This document shows positions 40,195 through 52,902 of a stretch of DNA of 64,000 nucleotides, piece by piece. The stretch covers positions 114,372 through 178,371 of the forward strand of contig JABIVD010000049.1 of NCBI GenBank assembly GCA_018667335.1, in the 5' to 3' direction. Each line of letters starts with the position of its first letter. Within the stretch, counting starts at the first letter, position 1. A program made the translations under genes and the position numbers. The notes under the pieces were generated by a model. It ran no database searches and was not told the origin of the DNA. It was given only the letters and a program-made list of their open reading frames with translations. The DNA is from Rhodospirillaceae bacterium (GTDB taxonomy: Bacteria > Pseudomonadota > Alphaproteobacteria > UBA6615).

Positions 40195-41193
40195 GTGAGC
40201 GAGACCAAGCAAGCGATTCCGGAAGTTGTTGAACTCAGTCATGCGTTCTTCAAGCCATTTTCGAATCCACATTTTCGGATGTCCGACCCGACCGACGAGA
40301 AGCCGGTATTTTCCGGCCTGCTCGGGGAACAGGTGATTGCGCTTCCACTCAAGGGGATCGCGCGTGAGCTGGGTATCGCGGAGGACTCCAAGGATGGGCT
40401 GATGCTGGATCTCGTTGGACAGGCGTTGCGCTATGTGACGATGTTGCAGATCGGGGATCCGATGCCGGCCGAAATGCTCACCGGCGATGCGTCATGGGAT
40501 CCGGAGGCGCGTCATCGCGACTTCTCTCGCCAGCGCGTGACGATGCAATTGGTATCCTGGCTGTCCGGTCAGGAGACCCTGATTACCGACCCGGTCGAAC
40601 TGCAACAATTGTTCGACGATCCGAACACCAAGAAAAAAATCAACGATGCGTTTGCGGAAGCGGCAAGGGAACTCGAAGTTCAGGACAAGGAACAGGTGAC
40701 GCAGAAGGTCGAGGAGCTGGCCGAGGAGCTGTCATACATCGAGGCCCTGCGCGACCGCTACAAAGACATCTGCGGCCTGCAGGACAAACTCTCGGCCTTC
40801 CGTCAGCAGTTCCGCAATCAGGCCAGCATGCTCGCGGAAATCGAACCGATCGTCCGTTTGATCGAGGTGCCGGTCAAAAACCTCGCATATGACTTCGACG
40901 TGGTTGACGCACAGACCGGCGAGATACTCGCGGTACTCAAGACCCTCGATGCTCAGCGCGAGTATATTCGCGAGCAGCGTGACGAGTTGCATTGCCGGCT
41001 CATGGCCTGGAATGACACCTTGCGAGATTGGGAAAATGTTATTCCTGGGTCCGAACCCTATGGGATGATGGACAAGCTGCGCGACCTTTATCGCTTCCTG
41101 GCACCAAGGTTTATGCCGGTGGATGAATGGGTTTTGTTCCATTCCGGGCAGGATAAGGACAAGGAGAAAATTTCCTCGGCGATGACCTGGTAA
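40195..41193 (+). CDS. Unrecognised helical protein of the chemotaxis cluster
   Basis: 332 residues starting with GTG at 40195 (VSETKQAIPEVVELSHAFFK), with GGTTGGGAA upstream. No signal peptide or membrane helix, so cytoplasmic. The N-terminal half mentions no known motif (FSGLLGEQVIALPLKGIARE, MLDLVGQALRYVTMLQIGDP). Residues about 155-285 are strongly helical and probably coiled-coil (VQDKEQVTQKVEELAEELSY, QDKLSAFRQQFRNQASMLAE, TLDAQREYIREQRDELHCRL). The C-terminus is PRFMPVDEWVLFHSGQDKDK. It faces cheZ-cheY across a bidirectional terminator and precedes no other gene on its strand, which makes a chemotaxis or flagellar role plausible. I do not recognise the family. Confidence 0.75.
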   Translation: MSETKQAIPEVVELSHAFFKPFSNPHFRMSDPTDEKPVFSGLLGEQVIALPLKGIARELGIAEDSKDGLMLDLVGQALRYVTMLQIGDPMPAEMLTGDASWDPEARHRDFSRQRVTMQLVSWLSGQETLITDPVELQQLFDDPNTKKKINDAFAEAARELEVQDKEQVTQKVEELAEELSYIEALRDRYKDICGLQDKLSAFRQQFRNQASMLAEIEPIVRLIEVPVKNLAYDFDVVDAQTGEILAVLKTLDAQREYIREQRDELHCRLMAWNDTLRDWENVIPGSEPYGMMDKLRDLYRFLAPRFMPVDEWVLFHSGQDKDKEKISSAMTW

Positions 41194-41285: not shown

Positions 41286-41795
41286 TTAGTCGAACAAGGC
41301 GTCGATGTCGTCCTGGGAGATGGCCTCATCGGTGAGTGCGGGGCCGTTCAGCAGGGCCTCATCGCCTTCGCGCTCATCCACCCCGTCGTCCGGTTCATCG
41401 AACTCGGGACCGAGGAGGTCCTGCAGGTCCTGCAGATGCGTGTCGACGAGTTCCAGCGTTGTCATCACTTTTGAAATTCGCTGACCGGTGAGATCCTGGA
41501 AAACGCAGGCTTCGAAAATCTTTGAACAGTTCTCCTGCACCAGAGCGGAGTAGCCCGCGTCCGACGCGTCAGCGCTGCTCATGATCTCGGCCGAATCCAT
41601 GATCGTGTTCGAAGCTTCTTCGGTCGCCTTGACGATTTCGTCCATCTCGAGCAAAGCGGCCGAGACATTCTTGGTTTTGAGTTTGGACGGACGCAGGGCG
41701 CCGATCTGCTTGCGCGCGTCGACGATTGTCCGCGCCAGCTCCCATACCTCATCATAGAGTATGTCGGCTGGTCCCTTCTTGACCGCGGGCTCCAT
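41286..41795 (-). CDS. cheZ: Chemotaxis protein CheZ (CheY-P phosphatase)
   Basis: 169 residues, shorter than E. coli CheZ (214). A helical N-terminus (ILYDEVWELARTIVDARKQI) leads to the paired-helix core with the family signature NCSKIFEACVFQDLTGQRIS, where the Gln that removes phosphate from CheY lies in the QDLTGQ block. An acidic linker (GPEFDEPDDGVDEREGDEAL) connects to a C-terminal CheY-binding peptide, SQDDIDALFD, equivalent to the last helix of E. coli CheZ. It overlaps cheY by one base. A dedicated CheZ means CheY-P is cleared enzymatically and not only by a phosphate-sink CheY. Confidence 0.93.
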   Translation of the reverse strand: MEPAVKKGPADILYDEVWELARTIVDARKQIGALRPSKLKTKNVSAALLEMDEIVKATEEASNTIMDSAEIMSSADASDAGYSALVQENCSKIFEACVFQDLTGQRISKVMTTLELVDTHLQDLQDLLGPEFDEPDDGVDEREGDEALLNGPALTDEAISQDDIDALFD

Positions 41796-42450: not shown

Positions 42451-45400
42451 ATGGATGATCTTCTCGCAGAATTTTTGACCGAAGCCACTGAGGGTATTGA
42501 GCTGCTCGATACCGAATTGGTGGATCTCGAACAACGTCCGGACGACCCGGCGTTGATCGGGAACATCTTCCGGGTTCTCCACACGATCAAAGGAACATCC
42601 GGATTCCTCGATTTGCCGCGTCTCGAATCCGTGGCGCATGCCGGCGAGAATGTCCTGGGCAAGTTCCGCGACGGGGAGCTCGAAGTGACCCCTGACGCAG
42701 TCGGCCTCATTCTCGAGGCCATGGACCGGGTCAAGGATCTGGTCTCGTCGATCGGTGAGATGGGTCATGAGCCGGCCGGAGACGATAGCGACCTGATCGG
42801 GCGCCTCGATGCGGGTATGCGCGGTGAGTTTGGCGGCGCAGCGACTGCGCCGGAGCCCGAAGCGGCGCCCGAACCCGAAGCAGCAGCTTCAGAAGAGCAC
42901 GAAGAAGCAGTAGCGTCAGAAGCGGGCGAAGAAGCGCCGGTGGTGGATGACGGCCGGTCGACCTATGAGCGAATTGGCGGGCTGTCGACGATCGATGCGA
43001 TCTGCGACGTGATGTATCGCCATGTTATGGCGGATGAACGCCTGAGCGATATTTATGCCGCCGGCGATGTGGATATCATCCACGGCGTGTTCCAGAACTA
43101 TTTGTGCGAGGCGACGGGCGGCAACAAGTCGGACGACAGCTACACACTGACCGATGCCCACGCGGAGCTGCGTGAGGCGGGCATGAAGGACAAGCATTTC
43201 GATGCAACCTTCGCGCATTTCTCCGTGGCGATGGCCGAACTCGAGATTCCGGGTCAGGATATGGCCGTTCTGGCGGATGCCTTTGACAAGGCACGTGGAC
43301 AGGTTCTGGCCCAGGAATCAGTTGGCGAGGTTCCCGCTGACGAGGCGGAGGTGACCGAGGTCGACGGCGAAATCGTCGAGGACGCCGCTGAGGTCGCCGC
43401 TGAGACCGCTGTTGAGGTTGCGCCGACAGAGGATGCGCCTGCCGAGAAGGAGGCCAAGATAACGCCGACTTCAATCGCCCAGTCGTTGCGTGTGAATGTG
43501 GATGTGCTCGAAAACCTGATGACCGTTGTCAGTGAGCTGGTGCTGACCCGCAACCAGCTGATGCAGATTCTTCGCGAGAGAAACAAGACCGAGTTTGATG
43601 CACCGCTTCAGCGGCTCAACCAGGTGACGTCGGAACTTCAGGAAAGCGTCATGCAGACGCGCATGCAGCCGATCGGCAATGCCTGGAACAAGTTGCCGCG
43701 TATCGTTCGCGACATCTCTCACGAACTGAACAAGAAGATCGAGCTCGATATGTCGGGGGCCGAGACCGAACTCGACCGTCAGGTGCTCGACCAGATCAAG
43801 GATCCGTTGACCCATATGGTTCGCAATTCCGGCGACCATGGGCTGGAGACACCGGAAGAGCGGCTCGCCGCAGGCAAGCCCGAAACCGGCAAGATCAAGC
43901 TCTCGGCCAGTCACGAAGGTGGACATATCATCATCGTGATCGCCGACGACGGGAAGGGCATCCCGGTCGGGAAAATCAAGGCCAAGGCGATCGCCAATGG
44001 TTTGACGACCACGGCCGACGCCGAGAACCTGACCGACCAGCAGATCCTGCAGTTCATCTTCAAGCCCGGTTTTTCGACGGCGGAGAAGGTCACGAATGTC
44101 TCGGGACGCGGCGTCGGTATGGACGTGGTCCGCACCAATATCGCCAAGATCGGCGGGACAGTCGATCTCCACTCCGTTGAGGGCGAGGGATCACGGTTCA
44201 CAATCAAAATTCCGCTGACCCTGGCGATCGTCCAGGCGCTGATCGTTCAGAGTGGTGGCGACCGTTTCGCAATTCCCCAGACGGCTGTCACCGAACTCGT
44301 CCGCACCAGCGAGTCCTCGGGTTATCAGATTGAAAGGGTCAACAACACGGCGGTTCTGCGCCTGCGCAACCGGCTGCTGCCGCTCGTATCGTTGCGCGAG
44401 CTGTTGGAGATCGACGCAAAGGAGGATCAGGGCGAAGAGAGCTATGTCGTTGTCGCGCGCTTCGGATCCTATGCGTTCGGCATCATGGTCGATCAGGTCT
44501 TCGATACCGAGGAGATTGTGGTCAAGCCGGTCGCGCGCGCGCTGCGTGATCTCGCGCTCTTCTCGGGCAATACAATTCTAGGGGACGGCAGCGTCGTGAT
44601 GATTCTCGATCCGAACGGGATCGTAATGGCCAGTGGCAACGATGCCGTTGAACAGTCTGACTCCGAACTCGAGGCGCGCGGTGACGGCAATCAGGCCGAA
44701 ACATCATCACTGCTGCTGTTCCGTTCGGGCGAGGGTGCTCCCAAGGCATTCCCGCTGGAGCTTGTCGCGCGAATCGAGGAGATCGATTTGTCTGGCGTCG
44801 AGACTGCCAATGGCGGTCCGGTGATCCAGTATCGTGAGGGACTGATGCCGTTGGCACTGATCGACGGGGCTGCGCCCCTGGGCTCGGAAGGCCGTCGTCC
44901 TGTGCTCGTTTTCTCCGATCTCGACCGCTCCCTCGGCCTCGTGGTCGACGAAATCGTGGATATCGTCGACCACCGTATCGAGTTCGAAAGTCAGGGCAAT
45001 GCACCGGGAATTCTCGGCAGCACAATTATCGAGGGACAGGCCACCGATCTTCTCGACGCCGGTCATTATCTGAAATCATTCGGTGGCGACTGGCTGTCTC
45101 GATCCAAATCGGACGGGGCCGCTGGCGATGCTGCGAAGCGGAGAATTCTCCTGGTCGAGGACAGTCCGTTTTTCCGGAATCTGCTGACGCCGTTGCTGCA
45201 GTCGGCTGGTTACGACGTCTGTGCGACAGAGAATGCGGATCAGGCCCTGGTGGTTCTGGAAGAGCAGCCGGAATTCGATGTGATCGTGTCCGATATCGAG
45301 ATGCCGGGTATGAGCGGACTGGAATTCGCAACCAAGTTGCGGAGCTCGGAAGCCTGGAAGGACACGCCGCTTCTGGCGCTGTCCAGCCACGATACCCAAC

Positions 45401-45516
45401 AGGATATCGATCGCGGCATTGAGGCCGGTTTCGACGAATATATCGCCAAGGCCGACCATTCCGCTCTGATCGACGTTCTGTCGCGCTCGGCAAACCCCGT
45501 AAAGAATGCCGCCTAG
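42451..45516 (+). CDS. cheA: Chemotaxis histidine kinase CheA with an embedded truncated-haemoglobin domain and C-terminal receiver
   Basis: 1021 residues from the ATG at 42451. Order: HPt domain (1-105) with phospho-His44 in FRVLHTIKGTSGFLDLPRLE; acidic Pro/Ala linker; truncated haemoglobin (about 168-286); second acidic linker; dimerisation helices from about 340 (VNVDVLENLMTVVSELVLTR); ATPase (HMVRNSGDHGLETPEER, IVIADDGKGIPVGKI, SGRGVGMDVVRTN); two CheW-like domains (first from QALIVQSGGDRFAIPQTAVT, second from SLLLFRSGEGAPKAFPLELV); receiver domain (RILLVEDSPFFRNLL, DVIVSDIEMPGMSGLEF). No P2 CheY-binding domain is seen; the globin occupies that place. It phosphorylates CheY and CheB under chemoreceptor control. 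A haem globin inside CheA would allow direct O2 or NO input. Kinase assignment is certain; globin assignment is strong on residue pattern. Confidence 0.95.
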   Translation: MDDLLAEFLTEATEGIELLDTELVDLEQRPDDPALIGNIFRVLHTIKGTSGFLDLPRLESVAHAGENVLGKFRDGELEVTPDAVGLILEAMDRVKDLVSSIGEMGHEPAGDDSDLIGRLDAGMRGEFGGAATAPEPEAAPEPEAAASEEHEEAVASEAGEEAPVVDDGRSTYERIGGLSTIDAICDVMYRHVMADERLSDIYAAGDVDIIHGVFQNYLCEATGGNKSDDSYTLTDAHAELREAGMKDKHFDATFAHFSVAMAELEIPGQDMAVLADAFDKARGQVLAQESVGEVPADEAEVTEVDGEIVEDAAEVAAETAVEVAPTEDAPAEKEAKITPTSIAQSLRVNVDVLENLMTVVSELVLTRNQLMQILRERNKTEFDAPLQRLNQVTSELQESVMQTRMQPIGNAWNKLPRIVRDISHELNKKIELDMSGAETELDRQVLDQIKDPLTHMVRNSGDHGLETPEERLAAGKPETGKIKLSASHEGGHIIIVIADDGKGIPVGKIKAKAIANGLTTTADAENLTDQQILQFIFKPGFSTAEKVTNVSGRGVGMDVVRTNIAKIGGTVDLHSVEGEGSRFTIKIPLTLAIVQALIVQSGGDRFAIPQTAVTELVRTSESSGYQIERVNNTAVLRLRNRLLPLVSLRELLEIDAKEDQGEESYVVVARFGSYAFGIMVDQVFDTEEIVVKPVARALRDLALFSGNTILGDGSVVMILDPNGIVMASGNDAVEQSDSELEARGDGNQAETSSLLLFRSGEGAPKAFPLELVARIEEIDLSGVETANGGPVIQYREGLMPLALIDGAAPLGSEGRRPVLVFSDLDRSLGLVVDEIVDIVDHRIEFESQGNAPGILGSTIIEGQATDLLDAGHYLKSFGGDWLSRSKSDGAAGDAAKRRILLVEDSPFFRNLLTPLLQSAGYDVCATENADQALVVLEEQPEFDVIVSDIEMPGMSGLEFATKLRSSEAWKDTPLLALSSHDTQQDIDRGIEAGFDEYIAKADHSALIDVLSRSANPVKNAA
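42952..43308 (+). other. Group I truncated-haemoglobin domain within CheA
   Basis: Residues about 168-286 align without large gaps to trHbN-type globins. STYERIGGLSTIDAICDVMY matches the A-B helices with Tyr189 at the distal B10 position; VMADERLSDIYA matches the C-CD turn, with Ile201-Tyr202 where the CD1 Phe pair lies; ATGG marks the EF glycines; YTLTDAHAEL places His237 at proximal F8; MKDKHFDATFAHFSVAMAEL is the G helix and IPGQDMAVLADAFDKARGQV the H helix. The haem ligand and distal Tyr are kept; CD1 is Tyr or Ile, not Phe, and E11 is Phe or Gln depending on the alignment. Confidence 0.88.
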
Positions 45517-46487: not shown

Positions 46488-47318
46488 CTAGGCGGCCGCT
46501 TCCTTGGGGTGTTGAATTTGGTAGAGGCCCTGTCGGTCTGGATGGCGTTCGTAGGCGTTCGTTAGTCCGATCATGGTTTCGGCGGCGCCGAGCACGAGGA
46601 ACGCATCCTTCTCGCTGGCGCTGACGATGGATTCGAGGACCGTCTGCTTCGTGGACTGATCGAAGTAGATCAGGACGTTGCGGCAAAAAACGATATCGAA
46701 CACGCCCAGGGAACGGGGGTTGTCGAGGAGGTTGAAAAACCGGAAGTCGATCTTCGACTTGATGTCCGGCTTGATGCCCCAATTGTCTCCGTGCTTCTCG
46801 AAATTCTGAATCAGCATCTTTGCCGGCAGACCACGCTGAACTTCGAACTGTGAAAACACGCCTTCCTTTGCGCGGTCGAGAATGGCGTGTGAAATGTCGG
46901 TCGCCACAATCTCGATTTTCCAGCCATCAAATGCGGCGCCCATGTCCTTCAGGATCATCGCCAGTGAATAGGGCTCCTGGCCGCTCGAGCAGGCGGCACA
47001 CCAAATTCTCAATCGCCGCCGGCTGGCACGTGTTTCGAGAATATGGGGCAGCATGACTTCGCGAAACGCGTCGAACGGCTTTTTGTCGCGAAAGAAGAAG
47101 GATTCGTTTGTGGTGAGTGCATCGGTCACTTCGCGCAACAGTTTCTCGTCGCGCGAGGTGCGGATGGCGCGCAGAAGCTCGGGTACGTCTGCATGTTCAT
47201 ACTGTCGCGCGATCGGTGCCAGCCGGTTGTCCACCAAATAGGCTTTCTCGGGGCTGAGGACGATCCCGGATCGGTCCTTGATCAGATCACAGAAATATTC
47301 GAAGTCACCGACGCTCAT
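46488..47318 (-). CDS. cheR: Chemoreceptor methyltransferase CheR
   Basis: 276 residues from the ATG at 47318. N-terminal helical domain: SVGDFEYFCDLIKDRSGIVL, EKLLREVTDALTTNESFFFR. SAM-binding domain: LRIWCAACSSGQEPYSLAMI (motif I), IEIVATDISHAILDRAKEGV, FDIVFCRNVLIYFDQSTKQT, FLVLGAAETMIGLTNAYERH. It methylates receptor glutamates using S-adenosylmethionine to reset sensitivity. Its ATG overlaps the cheB stop by four bases, coupling methylase and esterase synthesis. The second cheY follows after 33 bases. Confidence 0.96.
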   Translation of the reverse strand: MSVGDFEYFCDLIKDRSGIVLSPEKAYLVDNRLAPIARQYEHADVPELLRAIRTSRDEKLLREVTDALTTNESFFFRDKKPFDAFREVMLPHILETRASRRRLRIWCAACSSGQEPYSLAMILKDMGAAFDGWKIEIVATDISHAILDRAKEGVFSQFEVQRGLPAKMLIQNFEKHGDNWGIKPDIKSKIDFRFFNLLDNPRSLGVFDIVFCRNVLIYFDQSTKQTVLESIVSASEKDAFLVLGAAETMIGLTNAYERHPDRQGLYQIQHPKEAAA

Positions 47319-48442
47319 GATGCTGCTCCCCCGACAATACGCATGACAGCGGGCGCGAGGGCATCGATATCCAGAATTTGCCGGCATATCCCGGCCTGAG
47401 CCACGGCCCCCGGCATGCCCCAGACGACACTGGAGGCCTCGTCCTGGGCCAGGACGGTGCCGCCGGCCTCGACCGCCTTCTGGCAGCTGTTTTTGCCGTC
47501 CGATCCCATGCCGGTCAGGATCACGGTCAAAAGGGAGCCGCCATAGATGTCGATCAGGCTCTCCAACATGGGATCCACGGACGGGCGACAGAAATTCACC
47601 TTGGGTGCTTGCGAGAGGCGAATGACGGCGTTCCCGCGAGTCCCCTCGATCAGCATGTGATTGTTACCCGGCGCCAGATAGGCCGTGTTGGCTTCAACCC
47701 GCTGACCGTTGCTGGCCTCCATGACATTGCGGCCCGTGTCGCGCGTCAGATGTTTGGCGAGCAGCGCAGTGAAGGTGGCCGGCATGTGCTGGGTGATGAA
47801 AATGGGAAGCGTCATGGAGGCGTCGATCTTGGACAGGAAACGCGTCAGCGCCTGGGGCCCGCCGGTCGAACTGCCGACGACGAGTACTTCCGGCTTCTTC
47901 ACGGGCCCGGCCTTCAGCACGATCGGTGCGGGCGGCGCGGCGGTTGGCGTCGGCCTGGGGGCGACAACGGCGCCTGCGGGCCGCACCCGCGCTGTGCCGC
48001 CGCCGAGAGCGTGAATCATCTCGATGAGCTCACGCTTGAAGTCATCTGCAGTGCTGAGCCCGGCGCCGGAAGACGGTTTGGCCACGCACTCGGTCGCGCC
48101 GGCGGCGATTGCGCGCAGGCTGGCATCGGCATTTCGTTCCGTCAGGGTCGACGCCATCACGATCTTGACGTCCGGTTTGACTTCCAGAAGCAGGGGGATG
48201 GCCGTCAGGCCATCCATCACCGGCATCTCGATATCCAGGACAATGACATCGACATCGTCGGTCCGTTTGAGCGTTGCGACGGCGGCTTCGCCATTGCCGG
48301 CGGTCGCGACAATCTCGATCCCCGGATCGGGGTCGACGAAACGCCGTATCAGGCCCCGAACCACCGCGGAATCATCGACCAGCATTACCCGGACGGGCGC
48401 GCTGCTGGAGACTGTCGTTTCGACTTCTGCTGTTTGTGTCAT
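47315..48442 (-). CDS. cheB: Chemoreceptor glutamate methylesterase CheB
   Basis: 375 residues. N-terminal receiver: VRVMLVDDSAVVRGLIRRFV, phospho-acceptor Asp70 in DVDVIVLDIEMPVMDGLTAI, IVMASTLTERNADASLRAIA. A Pro-rich linker (APRPTPTAAPPAPIVLKAGP) leads to the esterase domain with the catalytic Ser in EVLVVGSSTGGPQALTRFL, His in FITQHMPATFTALLAKHL and Asp in VILTGMGSDGKNSCQKAVE. It removes methyl groups from receptors when phosphorylated by CheA. First gene of cheB-cheR-cheY2, with a 359-base gap to the chemoreceptor gene on the other strand. Confidence 0.97.
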   Translation of the reverse strand: MTQTAEVETTVSSSAPVRVMLVDDSAVVRGLIRRFVDPDPGIEIVATAGNGEAAVATLKRTDDVDVIVLDIEMPVMDGLTAIPLLLEVKPDVKIVMASTLTERNADASLRAIAAGATECVAKPSSGAGLSTADDFKRELIEMIHALGGGTARVRPAGAVVAPRPTPTAAPPAPIVLKAGPVKKPEVLVVGSSTGGPQALTRFLSKIDASMTLPIFITQHMPATFTALLAKHLTRDTGRNVMEASNGQRVEANTAYLAPGNNHMLIEGTRGNAVIRLSQAPKVNFCRPSVDPMLESLIDIYGGSLLTVILTGMGSDGKNSCQKAVEAGGTVLAQDEASSVVWGMPGAVAQAGICRQILDIDALAPAVMRIVGGAAS

Positions 48443-51153: not shown

Positions 51154-52902
51154 ATGAACAGATTTGGAAACAGCATCGCGTGGCGATTGATCTTGCCGAT
51201 CCCCGTGGTCCTCGTCGTCATGATCGCCGTCGCATGGTATTTCCTGCCGCGGGCAATCGCGGACAACGTTCGTGAAAGCGCCGTTCAGTCGGCTGTGCAG
51301 ACCGTCAATCAGTTCAAGACGCTGCGCGGCTACTATACGAAGAACATCATCAAGAAGGTCTTGGCCGACGGTTCGCTGAAGCCAAGCATTGATCATGCGG
51401 GCAAGCCGGGGACCGTGCCGCTGCCGGCGACCCTGATCCATGATCTGGGCGCGCTTTTCAAGGATCAGGCCACGCGCTTGAACCTGTATAGCGGCTTCCC
51501 GTTTCCCAACCGCGCCAGCCGCGTCCTTGATCCGTTTCAGCAAGAAGCCTGGGACACACTGTCGCTGAATCCCGATGAAATCTTCGTTCGCGAAGAGGTC
51601 GTTGATGGTCAGAAGATGGTTCGCGTGGCCGTCGCGGACAAGCTCGTCGCGGAGGGCTGTGTCGCGTGTCACAACGGCCGTGCCGACACTCCGAAGAACG
51701 ATTGGAAGCTTGATGACGTCCGCGGGGTACTCGAAGTCTCCACGGTCATCGAGCCTCAGCTCATCGCCGGCGCAACGCTGAGCCGAAACACCATGTTCGG
51801 TGCGTTTGGAGCCGGCCTGCTGTTGCTCATTGCAGTGGTGCTTGGTGCTCTCAGTATCGTCAAGCCACTCAAAGCCATGACGAATGTGATGAAGCGCCTG
51901 GCATCCGGTGATAACGACGTCGAAATCCCTGCGCGTAACAGCAAGGACGAGATTGGTTCGATGGCGGAAGCGGTCGAGGTGTTTAAACACAACGCCATTG
52001 AACGCGCCGAAATGGAGGTCGAACAGGCCGAAAGACGCGAGACCGACGATCTGAGGACCAAACAGATCGAAGATCTGATCGGTGAATTCGATGGCACCGC
52101 CAAGCAGGCACTGGGGTCGGTTTCGGCCTCTGCGGATCAGATGAAGTCATCGGCGTCTTCGATGACCGTGATGGCGGACGAGGCGAGCCAGCGTTCGTCG
52201 AGTGTCGCGGCAGCGTCCGAACAGGCGACCACGAACGTCCAGACAGTCGCGACGGCCGCCGAAGAAATGTCTGCCTCGGTCGAGGAGATATCGCGTCAGG
52301 TGGCACAAAGCGCGGAGATGGCGACAAACGCCGTCACGCGCGCCAACGCCACCAATGAAAAGGTCGAGGGCCTGGCGGCCGCCGCGCAGAAGATTGGCGA
52401 GGTCGTCAGTCTGATCAATGACATCGCGGCCCAGACCAACCTGTTGGCGCTGAATGCGACCATCGAGGCCTCGCGTGCCGGTGAGGCCGGCAAGGGCTTC
52501 GCGGTTGTGGCGTCGGAGGTGAAGTCTCTGGCAACGCAGACGGCCAAGGCGACCGAAGAGATCGGTGCGCAGATTGCCGCGATCCAGGGCGAGACCGAGG
52601 AAGCGGTTTCGGCGATCCGCGAGATCGGAACGTCGATCACCGAGATCTCGGAGACTGCCACTGCGATCGCATCTGCGGTCGAGGAGCAGGGTGCTGCGAC
52701 GCGAGAAATCGCCGAGAATGTGCAGCAGGCGGCTTCCGGTACGCAGGATGTTTCGTCGAATATCGCCGAAGTGTCGCGCGGTGCCCAGGAGGCGGGATCG
52801 GCATCCCAGGAAGTCCTGACCGCCGCCGAGGAGCTCGGGGTCCAGTCGGACGAGCTGCAGGCGACCGTGTCGTCCTTCCTCGATCGGGTGAAGGCCGCCT
52901 AG
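51154..52902 (+). CDS. Methyl-accepting chemotaxis protein with a periplasmic haem c (CxxCH, Tll0287/DUF3365-like) sensor
   Basis: 582 residues. Membrane helix 1 is about 10-30 ([20 protein letters not shown]). A periplasmic domain of about 180 residues follows, with [60 protein letters not shown] and a haem-attachment motif CVACH at residues 169-173 (51658-51672). This is the DUF3365/Tll0287 pattern, a PAS-like fold that binds haem c. Helix 2 is about 214-236. [24 protein letters not shown]. Signalling tip: [20 protein letters not shown]. The CxxCH faces the periplasm, where cytochrome c maturation works. A redox or gas-sensing receptor is inferred. Confidence 0.93.

What the first reader, a model, noticed from the sequence alone, without database searches (positions are those of the whole stretch)
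42451..45516. CheA kinase carrying a complete truncated-haemoglobin domain in place of P2
Between the HPt domain and the dimerisation helices, residues about 168-286 follow the group I truncated haemoglobin pattern nearly residue by residue. The proximal His (His237) and the B10 Tyr (Tyr189) are present, together with the GG of the EF turn and all helices; only the CD1 aromatic is changed (Tyr or Ile for Phe). HPt His44, ATPase boxes, two CheW-like domains and a receiver are all intact, so the fusion should be a functional kinase. Globin-coupled sensors are known on receptors (HemAT type) and on cyclases; I know of no characterised CheA with a globin inside. It would let O2, NO or CO act directly on the kinase, bypassing receptors, and the missing P2 implies CheY is recruited otherwise or slowly.
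Basis: partly seen in the sequence, partly recalled or inferred. Interest (0 to 1): 0.93.

Follow-up and report, generated by a model that had tools for sequence, protein, structure and literature searches.

The report
Chemotaxis kinase with built-in haemoglobin
The only chemotaxis kinase (CheA) found in this bacterium's draft genome carries a truncated-haemoglobin domain inside it, which would likely let a gas such as oxygen act on swimming behaviour at the kinase itself rather than through a receptor; globins of two different families sit inside CheA kinases of related bacteria.

The parts
42451..45516 (+). cheA: P1 (HPt) - linker - trHb - linker - P3 - P4 - P5 (CheW) - second CheW - receiver
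42457..42735 (+). HPt (P1), residues 3-95, phospho-acceptor His44
   Evidence: Pfam Hpt 57 bits; His44
42832..42951 (+). Linker 1, residues 128-167, acidic, Ala/Glu/Pro-rich, probably flexible
   Evidence: 28% mean pairwise identity and 30% gaps in 8 relatives; net charge -13 over residues 121-167
42952..43314 (+). Truncated-haemoglobin domain, residues 168-288
   Evidence: Pfam Bac_globin, PDB sequence match, AlphaFold2 plus VIA-align
43015..43017 (+). Tyr189, B10 distal residue
   Evidence: invariant in the 8-member clade
43054..43056 (+). Tyr202 at CD1 (Phe in most other CheA trHbs that keep the proximal His)
   Evidence: invariant in the 8-member clade
43090..43092 (+). Phe214 at E11 (Gln in 13 of 16 other linker copies that keep the proximal His)
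43159..43161 (+). His237, proximal F8 haem ligand (predicted)
43321..43473 (+). Linker 2, residues 291-341, acidic, probably flexible
   Evidence: 33% mean identity and 35% gaps in 8 relatives; net charge -14 over residues 291-342
43480..43659 (+). Dimerisation domain P3, residues 344-403
43801..44220 (+). ATPase domain P4, residues 451-590
44233..44625 (+). First CheW-like domain (P5), residues 595-725; the loop after residue 658 is where four relatives carry a globin
45145..45471 (+). Receiver domain, residues 899-1007
41286..41795 (-). cheZ
   Evidence: PF04344
41795..42184 (-). cheY (a)
   Evidence: PF00072
45544..45999 (+). cheW
   Evidence: PF01584
46083..46475 (-). cheY (b)
   Evidence: PF00072
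46488..47387 (-). cheR (longest ORF; the real start may be further in, a guess)
   Evidence: PF01739, scanned from 47321
47315..48442 (-). cheB
   Evidence: PF01339
48796..50937 (+). Chemoreceptor (HAMP + MCP signal), no globin

Best explanation
This is the only CheA found in the draft genome, it carries a group-I-type truncated-haemoglobin domain in the linker between P1 and P3, and that domain is predicted to bind haem and would likely let O2 (or NO/CO) change kinase activity directly. Shown: the place of the domain and its sequence match, a confident predicted fold, conservation of the two key haem-pocket residues in the clade, gap-free conservation of the domain between fast-changing linkers, and globins of two families in CheA kinases at the same two places. 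Inferred: haem is bound through His237 with Tyr189 (and perhaps Tyr202) over the distal side. Inferred: because both tethers are long, acidic and poorly conserved, the domain does not act like the helical link of a globin-coupled sensor; gas binding would instead change how the globin docks on P1, P4 or the CheW/receptor ring, and so change how often P1 reaches the ATPase site. Inferred: such an input would not be fully reset by CheR/CheB acting on receptors, so it would set a standing bias of the motor according to gas level (a kinesis-like control), on top of ordinary chemotaxis through four receptors.
For: Place and fold. In the genome there is one H-kinase_dim match, four MCP matches, two Bac_globin matches, this CheA and a stand-alone trHb, and no match to the other two globin families, Protoglobin and Globin, so none of the receptors found has a globin that Pfam sees. 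In the window's 8-member clade the globin has 66% mean pairwise identity and no gaps, against 28% and 33% with 30-35% gaps in the flanking linkers, and about the same as the second CheW region (68%). In those eight, 35 of 124 aligned globin columns are invariant, Tyr189 and His237 among them. In CheA trHb copies B10 Tyr goes with F8 His: 25 of 27 copies with His have Tyr (one Phe, one truncated), 0 of 15 without His. An F-family globin (PF00042) in 15 CheA proteins, 14 of 15 with the proximal His, is a separate capture. Some proteins carry a second trHb with the haem residues: beside a copy without them (P0044), or in P5 (L086, whose linker copy has His but not Tyr; L088, whose linker copy has both). 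Kin of both globins sit on chemoreceptors. Precedent for globin control of a histidine kinase: AfGcHK, Fe(II)-O2 active, Fe(II) inactive (PMC8697598, passages read).
Against: The distal pocket is altered (Tyr CD1, Phe E11). The window's model fits solved trHbs less closely than the model of P0007, which lacks the proximal His: to 6cii, TM by target 0.84 at 2.3 A against 0.92 at 1.1 A. In the domain tree the window's clade sits on a long branch in a group of 22 rows, 12 of which are haem-less copies (84/87, few columns). 15 of 42 copies have lost the His yet keep the domain, so it has some use without haem in other lineages, or decays slowly. The B10/F8 link rests on 3 independent contrasts on well-supported branches (5 on all branches), too few for significance. 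One member of the wider 15-row clade, L112, lacks both residues. The flexible linkers give no obvious route for allostery.
Confidence: 0.55

Rival explanations
1. The domain is a protein-docking or spacing module that works without haem, for example holding CheY or CheB near P1 as P2 does elsewhere, and the haem residues are relics.
For: 15 of 42 CheA trHb copies lack the proximal His and keep the domain, one with a good trHb model (P0007); no P2 found in this CheA; flexible linkers; altered E11 and CD1.
Against: Globin-free relatives also show no Pfam P2 and seem to manage without a substitute (10 of 10). Tyr189 and His237 are kept in 8 of 8 clade members where 35 of 124 columns are invariant. 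A second globin family with the proximal His in 14 of 15 was captured separately. P0044 has an intact copy behind a decayed one.
Confidence: 0.25
2. The globin is a tethered enzyme (NO dioxygenase or similar) that clears NO or O2 species near the signalling array rather than a sensor.
For: NO dioxygenation is a common activity of globins (start of the abstract of PMC3820574 seen in a search listing; for trHbN recalled); flexible tethers suit a tethered enzyme.
Against: No reductase among the ten neighbouring gene products scanned; the genome has a separate stand-alone trHb; one enzyme per kinase seems too little to clear NO (inference).
Confidence: 0.1
3. A neutral passenger: a globin-coding piece tolerated by a disordered linker.
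For: The linker varies in length in relatives; presence or kind of globin changes at least 13 times on the CheA tree.
Against: Gap-free conservation about equal to the second CheW region; a whole supported clade of 15 rows keeps it (100/98); the same two places used by two globin families.
Confidence: 0.1

Closest known systems
Globin-coupled sensors: HemAT-type receptors and the histidine kinase AfGcHK
   Same: Globin domain on a chemotaxis receptor or a histidine kinase; O2 control of autophosphorylation in AfGcHK (PMC8697598, passages)
   Different: Those have an N-terminal sensor globin (PMC13401364, passages; Protoglobin PF11563 for HemAT, PMC6194562). Here a T-family globin is internal, between flexible linkers, and the kinase is CheA, which works in receptor arrays.
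Bac_globin-PAS-MCP receptors (C. coralloides Cc_4972; P0049, P0050 here)
   Same: The same globin family and the same signalling system; P0049 is 55% identical to a CheA-borne trHb over the BLASTP match
   Different: There the globin is on the receptor (in silico paper PMC6194562, passages), here on the kinase.
Group I truncated haemoglobins (cyanoglobin, Chlamydomonas THB1, TrHbN)
   Same: 2/2 fold, glycine motifs, F8 His, B10 Tyr
   Different: CD1 Tyr, E11 Phe; embedded in a kinase.
F5-class alphaproteobacterial CheA (two CheW domains and a receiver)
   Same: All core domains and layout (class description in PMC10782961)
   Different: The extra globin. The survey's preprint abstract states that CheA lacks a sensor (input) domain, and neither main text holds the word 'globin'.

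Membership tests
CheA histidine kinase | HPt with phospho-His, P3, ATPase domain, CheW-like P5 | tested here: met
   His44 and ATPase boxes
CheA histidine kinase | P2/CheY-binding domain (optional; missing in over half of CheAs per PMC10782961) | tested here: inconclusive
   No Pfam P2 or CheY-binding match, but Pfam's P2 models miss many
F5-class CheA | Two CheW domains and a C-terminal receiver | tested here: met
   class description from PMC10782961; the class was not assigned by a class tree
Group I truncated haemoglobin | 2/2 globin fold | tested here: met
   predicted model
Group I truncated haemoglobin | Proximal F8 His and B10 Tyr | tested here: met
   His237, Tyr189
Group I truncated haemoglobin | CD1 Phe (recalled as usual) | tested here: not met
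   Tyr202
Group I truncated haemoglobin | Distal E11 Gln (recalled as usual in this group, not strict) | tested here: not met
   Phe214
Group I truncated haemoglobin | Haem binding | not testable with these tools
   needs purified protein
Globin-coupled sensor (HemAT/AfGcHK type) | N-terminal sensor globin (Protoglobin, PF11563) | tested here: not met
   No PF11563 match in the protein or the genome; the domain is PF01152 and internal
Globin-coupled sensor (HemAT/AfGcHK type) | Ligand state of haem controls the output domain | not testable with these tools
   needs kinase assays

The most novel reading that the evidence does not exclude
Alphaproteobacterial chemotaxis kinases have repeatedly become their own gas receptors. 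At least two globin families (T and F) were captured by CheA, at two places (the P1-P3 linker and one P5 loop), sometimes twice in one protein, giving a class of direct-sensing CheA that breaks the rule that CheA has no input domain and that feeds O2 or NO into the array below the level of receptor adaptation.
Probability: 0.5. Interest if true: 0.88.

Novelty: new variant of a known kind. Interest (0 to 1): 0.8.

Why it matters
CheA is described as the histidine kinase without an input domain; sensing is said to come through receptors. A CheA with its own haem globin would let a gas set kinase activity directly, outside receptor methylation, which would make it possible to ask whether a non-adapting input can steer or only bias swimming. 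The family also holds natural controls: related kinases without a globin, with a haem-signature globin, with a globin that has lost the haem residues, and with both.

Tried and rejected
Rejected: 'P2 replaced by globin' (10 of 10 globin-free relatives show no Pfam P2; Pfam's limits noted). Rejected: assembly chimera (same layout in P0001-P0006). Rejected: one ancestral capture of one globin (two globin families). Whether the T-family entered CheA once or several times is not settled: the domain tree has few columns, and the least count of 13 changes on the CheA tree (states T-globin, F-globin, none) does not tell gain from loss.

The whole-phylum match list was cut; of the long-frame hits that I fetched from it two are CheA-trHb of the same class (L108, L109) and two from outside the class have no CheA core (L110, L111). 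Three more hits in frames of 451 to 486 aa (one outside the class) were not fetched. No PF00042 hit of the class sample was fetched.

Rows dropped or chosen: tree, 123 of 129 CheA rows (distant rows and one duplicate left out); tree, 87 of those 123 (36 long-branch, near-identical or short rows left out); tree, 38 rows (first linker copies only, truncated P0058 left out; P0047 and L093 are one protein). The 15-row invariance count was made on haem-signature rows only: L112, which lacks both residues, was left out by my choice, so its 12 of 124 figure is not used as evidence. Partial CheAs L101 and L102 are counted in the 19 genomes but not in the 42 copies. The 42 copies are rows and include the P0047/L093 pair.

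Full report

WHERE IT SITS. The cluster holds cheZ and cheY (divergent), cheA, cheW, then cheY, cheR, cheB and a chemoreceptor. L003, from a related alphaproteobacterial MAG, keeps the order from the unknown 332-aa gene and cheZ through cheB, and L087 and L093 keep the divergent cheY-cheZ beside cheA. In the genome (96% complete) I found one CheA, four chemoreceptors and two Bac_globin genes: this one and a stand-alone trHb on another contig. The other two globin families have no match (Protoglobin; Globin). If this globin senses a gas, it does so on the only chemotaxis kinase found, and none of the receptors found carries a globin that Pfam sees.

IS IT CONSTRAINED? In the window's clade of eight proteins the globin has 66% mean pairwise identity without gaps; the linkers on both sides have 28% and 33% with 30-35% gaps; the second CheW region has 68%. 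35 of 124 globin columns are invariant in the eight, including Tyr189, Tyr202, Tyr217 and His237. This speaks against a passive passenger.

HOW COMMON IS IT? Of 24 genomes of the order, G000 and G001 have a CheA with a trHb; a third CheA of this type (G010) is cut by a contig end before this region, and 21 have no CheA match at E up to 1e-80. Of 385 genomes sampled across the class, 19 have a CheA with a trHb: G000, G001, G060, G082, G104, G110, G114, G118, G145, G187, G218, G248, G284, G313, G320, G326, G360, G390, G397 (checked with a CheA-core profile; trHbs in short frames at contig ends were not checked, so this is a lower bound). Ten of the 19 have at least one copy with the proximal His (G000, G001, G082, G104, G114, G118, G145, G218, G248, G326) and nine have none. 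In 398 genomes of the phylum the CheA-trHb proteins that I checked all came from the same class; the match list was cut. A search of 5.8 billion proteins with the domain region of this protein found 7 relatives, all CheA with Bac_globin; a search with another CheA-trHb found 17, of which 10 were CheA, 6 chemoreceptors and 1 another protein.

A SECOND GLOBIN FAMILY. L005 carries in the same linker an F-family globin (PF00042) instead (family named). A search with it found 34 proteins: 15 CheA with this globin, 2 CheA without it, 15 MCP-domain proteins with one or three such globins, and 2 others (globin copies counted). The proximal His is kept in 14 of the 15 CheA (P0018 has Tyr). In the 385-genome sample no PF00042 hit lay in a frame longer than 776 aa and none was fetched, so this kind looks rarer.

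TWO PLACES. Four CheAs carry a globin not only or not at all in the linker but in one loop of P5, after the position of window residue 658: L086 and L088 with T-family globins, P0021 and P0037 with F-family ones. L086 and L088 have a linker copy as well. P0044 has two trHbs in tandem in the linker, the first without and the second with the haem residues.

HAEM OR NOT? Of 42 trHb copies in CheA proteins, 27 have the proximal His (25 of these also B10 Tyr, one Phe, one truncated) and 15 lack it, none of them with B10 Tyr. On the CheA-core tree (87 rows) the window falls in a clade of 15 (100/98), all with a linker trHb and 14 of 15 with both haem residues (L112 has neither); presence or kind of globin changes at least 13 times and the proximal His at least 6 times (5 times in the 38-row tree). 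The co-loss looks like loss of haem together with loss of the distal tyrosine, but only 3 to 5 contrasts are independent, so this is a pattern, not a test. A copy without the His (P0007) still gives a trHb model (pLDDT 82.8), and that model fits solved trHbs more closely than the window's does (6cii: 1.1 A against 2.3 A). In the domain tree the window's clade lies on a long branch among mostly haem-less copies, with modest support. So the domain can be kept without haem, and the window's pocket is unusual; I put haem binding here at about 0.7 (judgement).

HOW IT MAY WORK. Globin-coupled sensors have an N-terminal globin joined to the output part. Here the globin hangs between two acidic, fast-changing linkers. 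A docking mechanism fits this better: ligand binding changes how the globin contacts P1, P4 or the P5/CheW ring, and thereby the kinase rate. This step is inference. Since receptor methylation acts upstream, such an input would not be fully adapted and would set a standing motor bias; that too is inference.

P2. Ten globin-free relatives have no P2 in Pfam either, and the 13 globin-free linkers printed are mostly Ala/Pro/Glu-rich. The survey PMC10782961 (passages and section 11 read) reports that over half of CheAs lack P2, and that Pfam misses many P2 domains, so absence is likely rather than proven.

LITERATURE. In that survey and its preprint (PMC10542144) the word 'globin' does not occur in the main text, and the preprint's abstract says CheA lacks a sensor (input) domain; supplements and figures were not seen. 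Bac_globin on chemoreceptors is known in silico (PMC6194562, passages). The 2026 aerotaxis review PMC13401364 discusses globins on receptors in the 12 of 22 passages shown. Ten searches listed no paper whose title or shown abstract describes a CheA with a globin; subscription papers are largely not held.

VERDICT. The architecture is real, constrained and recurrent; direct gas control of the kinase is the best explanation and is untested.

Noticed in passing
window 40195-41193 (+): A 332-aa protein without any Pfam match beside cheZ; L003 keeps a homologue (50% identity) at the same place.
   Followed up: no
window 41286-41795 (-): cheZ stands beside a single CheA with a receiver domain; PMC10782961 reports that 93% of genomes with one receiver-bearing CheA lack a chemosensory phosphatase.
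   Followed up: no
window about 52306-52791 (+): A second chemoreceptor lies downstream of the cluster (G000:C37:166677-167162).
   Followed up: no
G000:C13:42305-42634 (L001): A stand-alone trHb with F8 His and B10 Tyr in the same genome; a near relative is in G023 (L115).
   Followed up: partly
P0008-P0012: MCP-domain proteins with three F-family globins each.
   Followed up: no
P0042, P0014, P0039: Other globin fusions: two trHbs in a protein with PF13435 and PF22113; a cryptophyte protein with several globins; a PF00211 protein with a C-terminal F-globin.
   Followed up: no
L101 and L112 (G248): One genome bin holds a haem-signature CheA-trHb and a haem-less one; the bin is 10% contaminated, so they may come from two organisms.
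   Followed up: no
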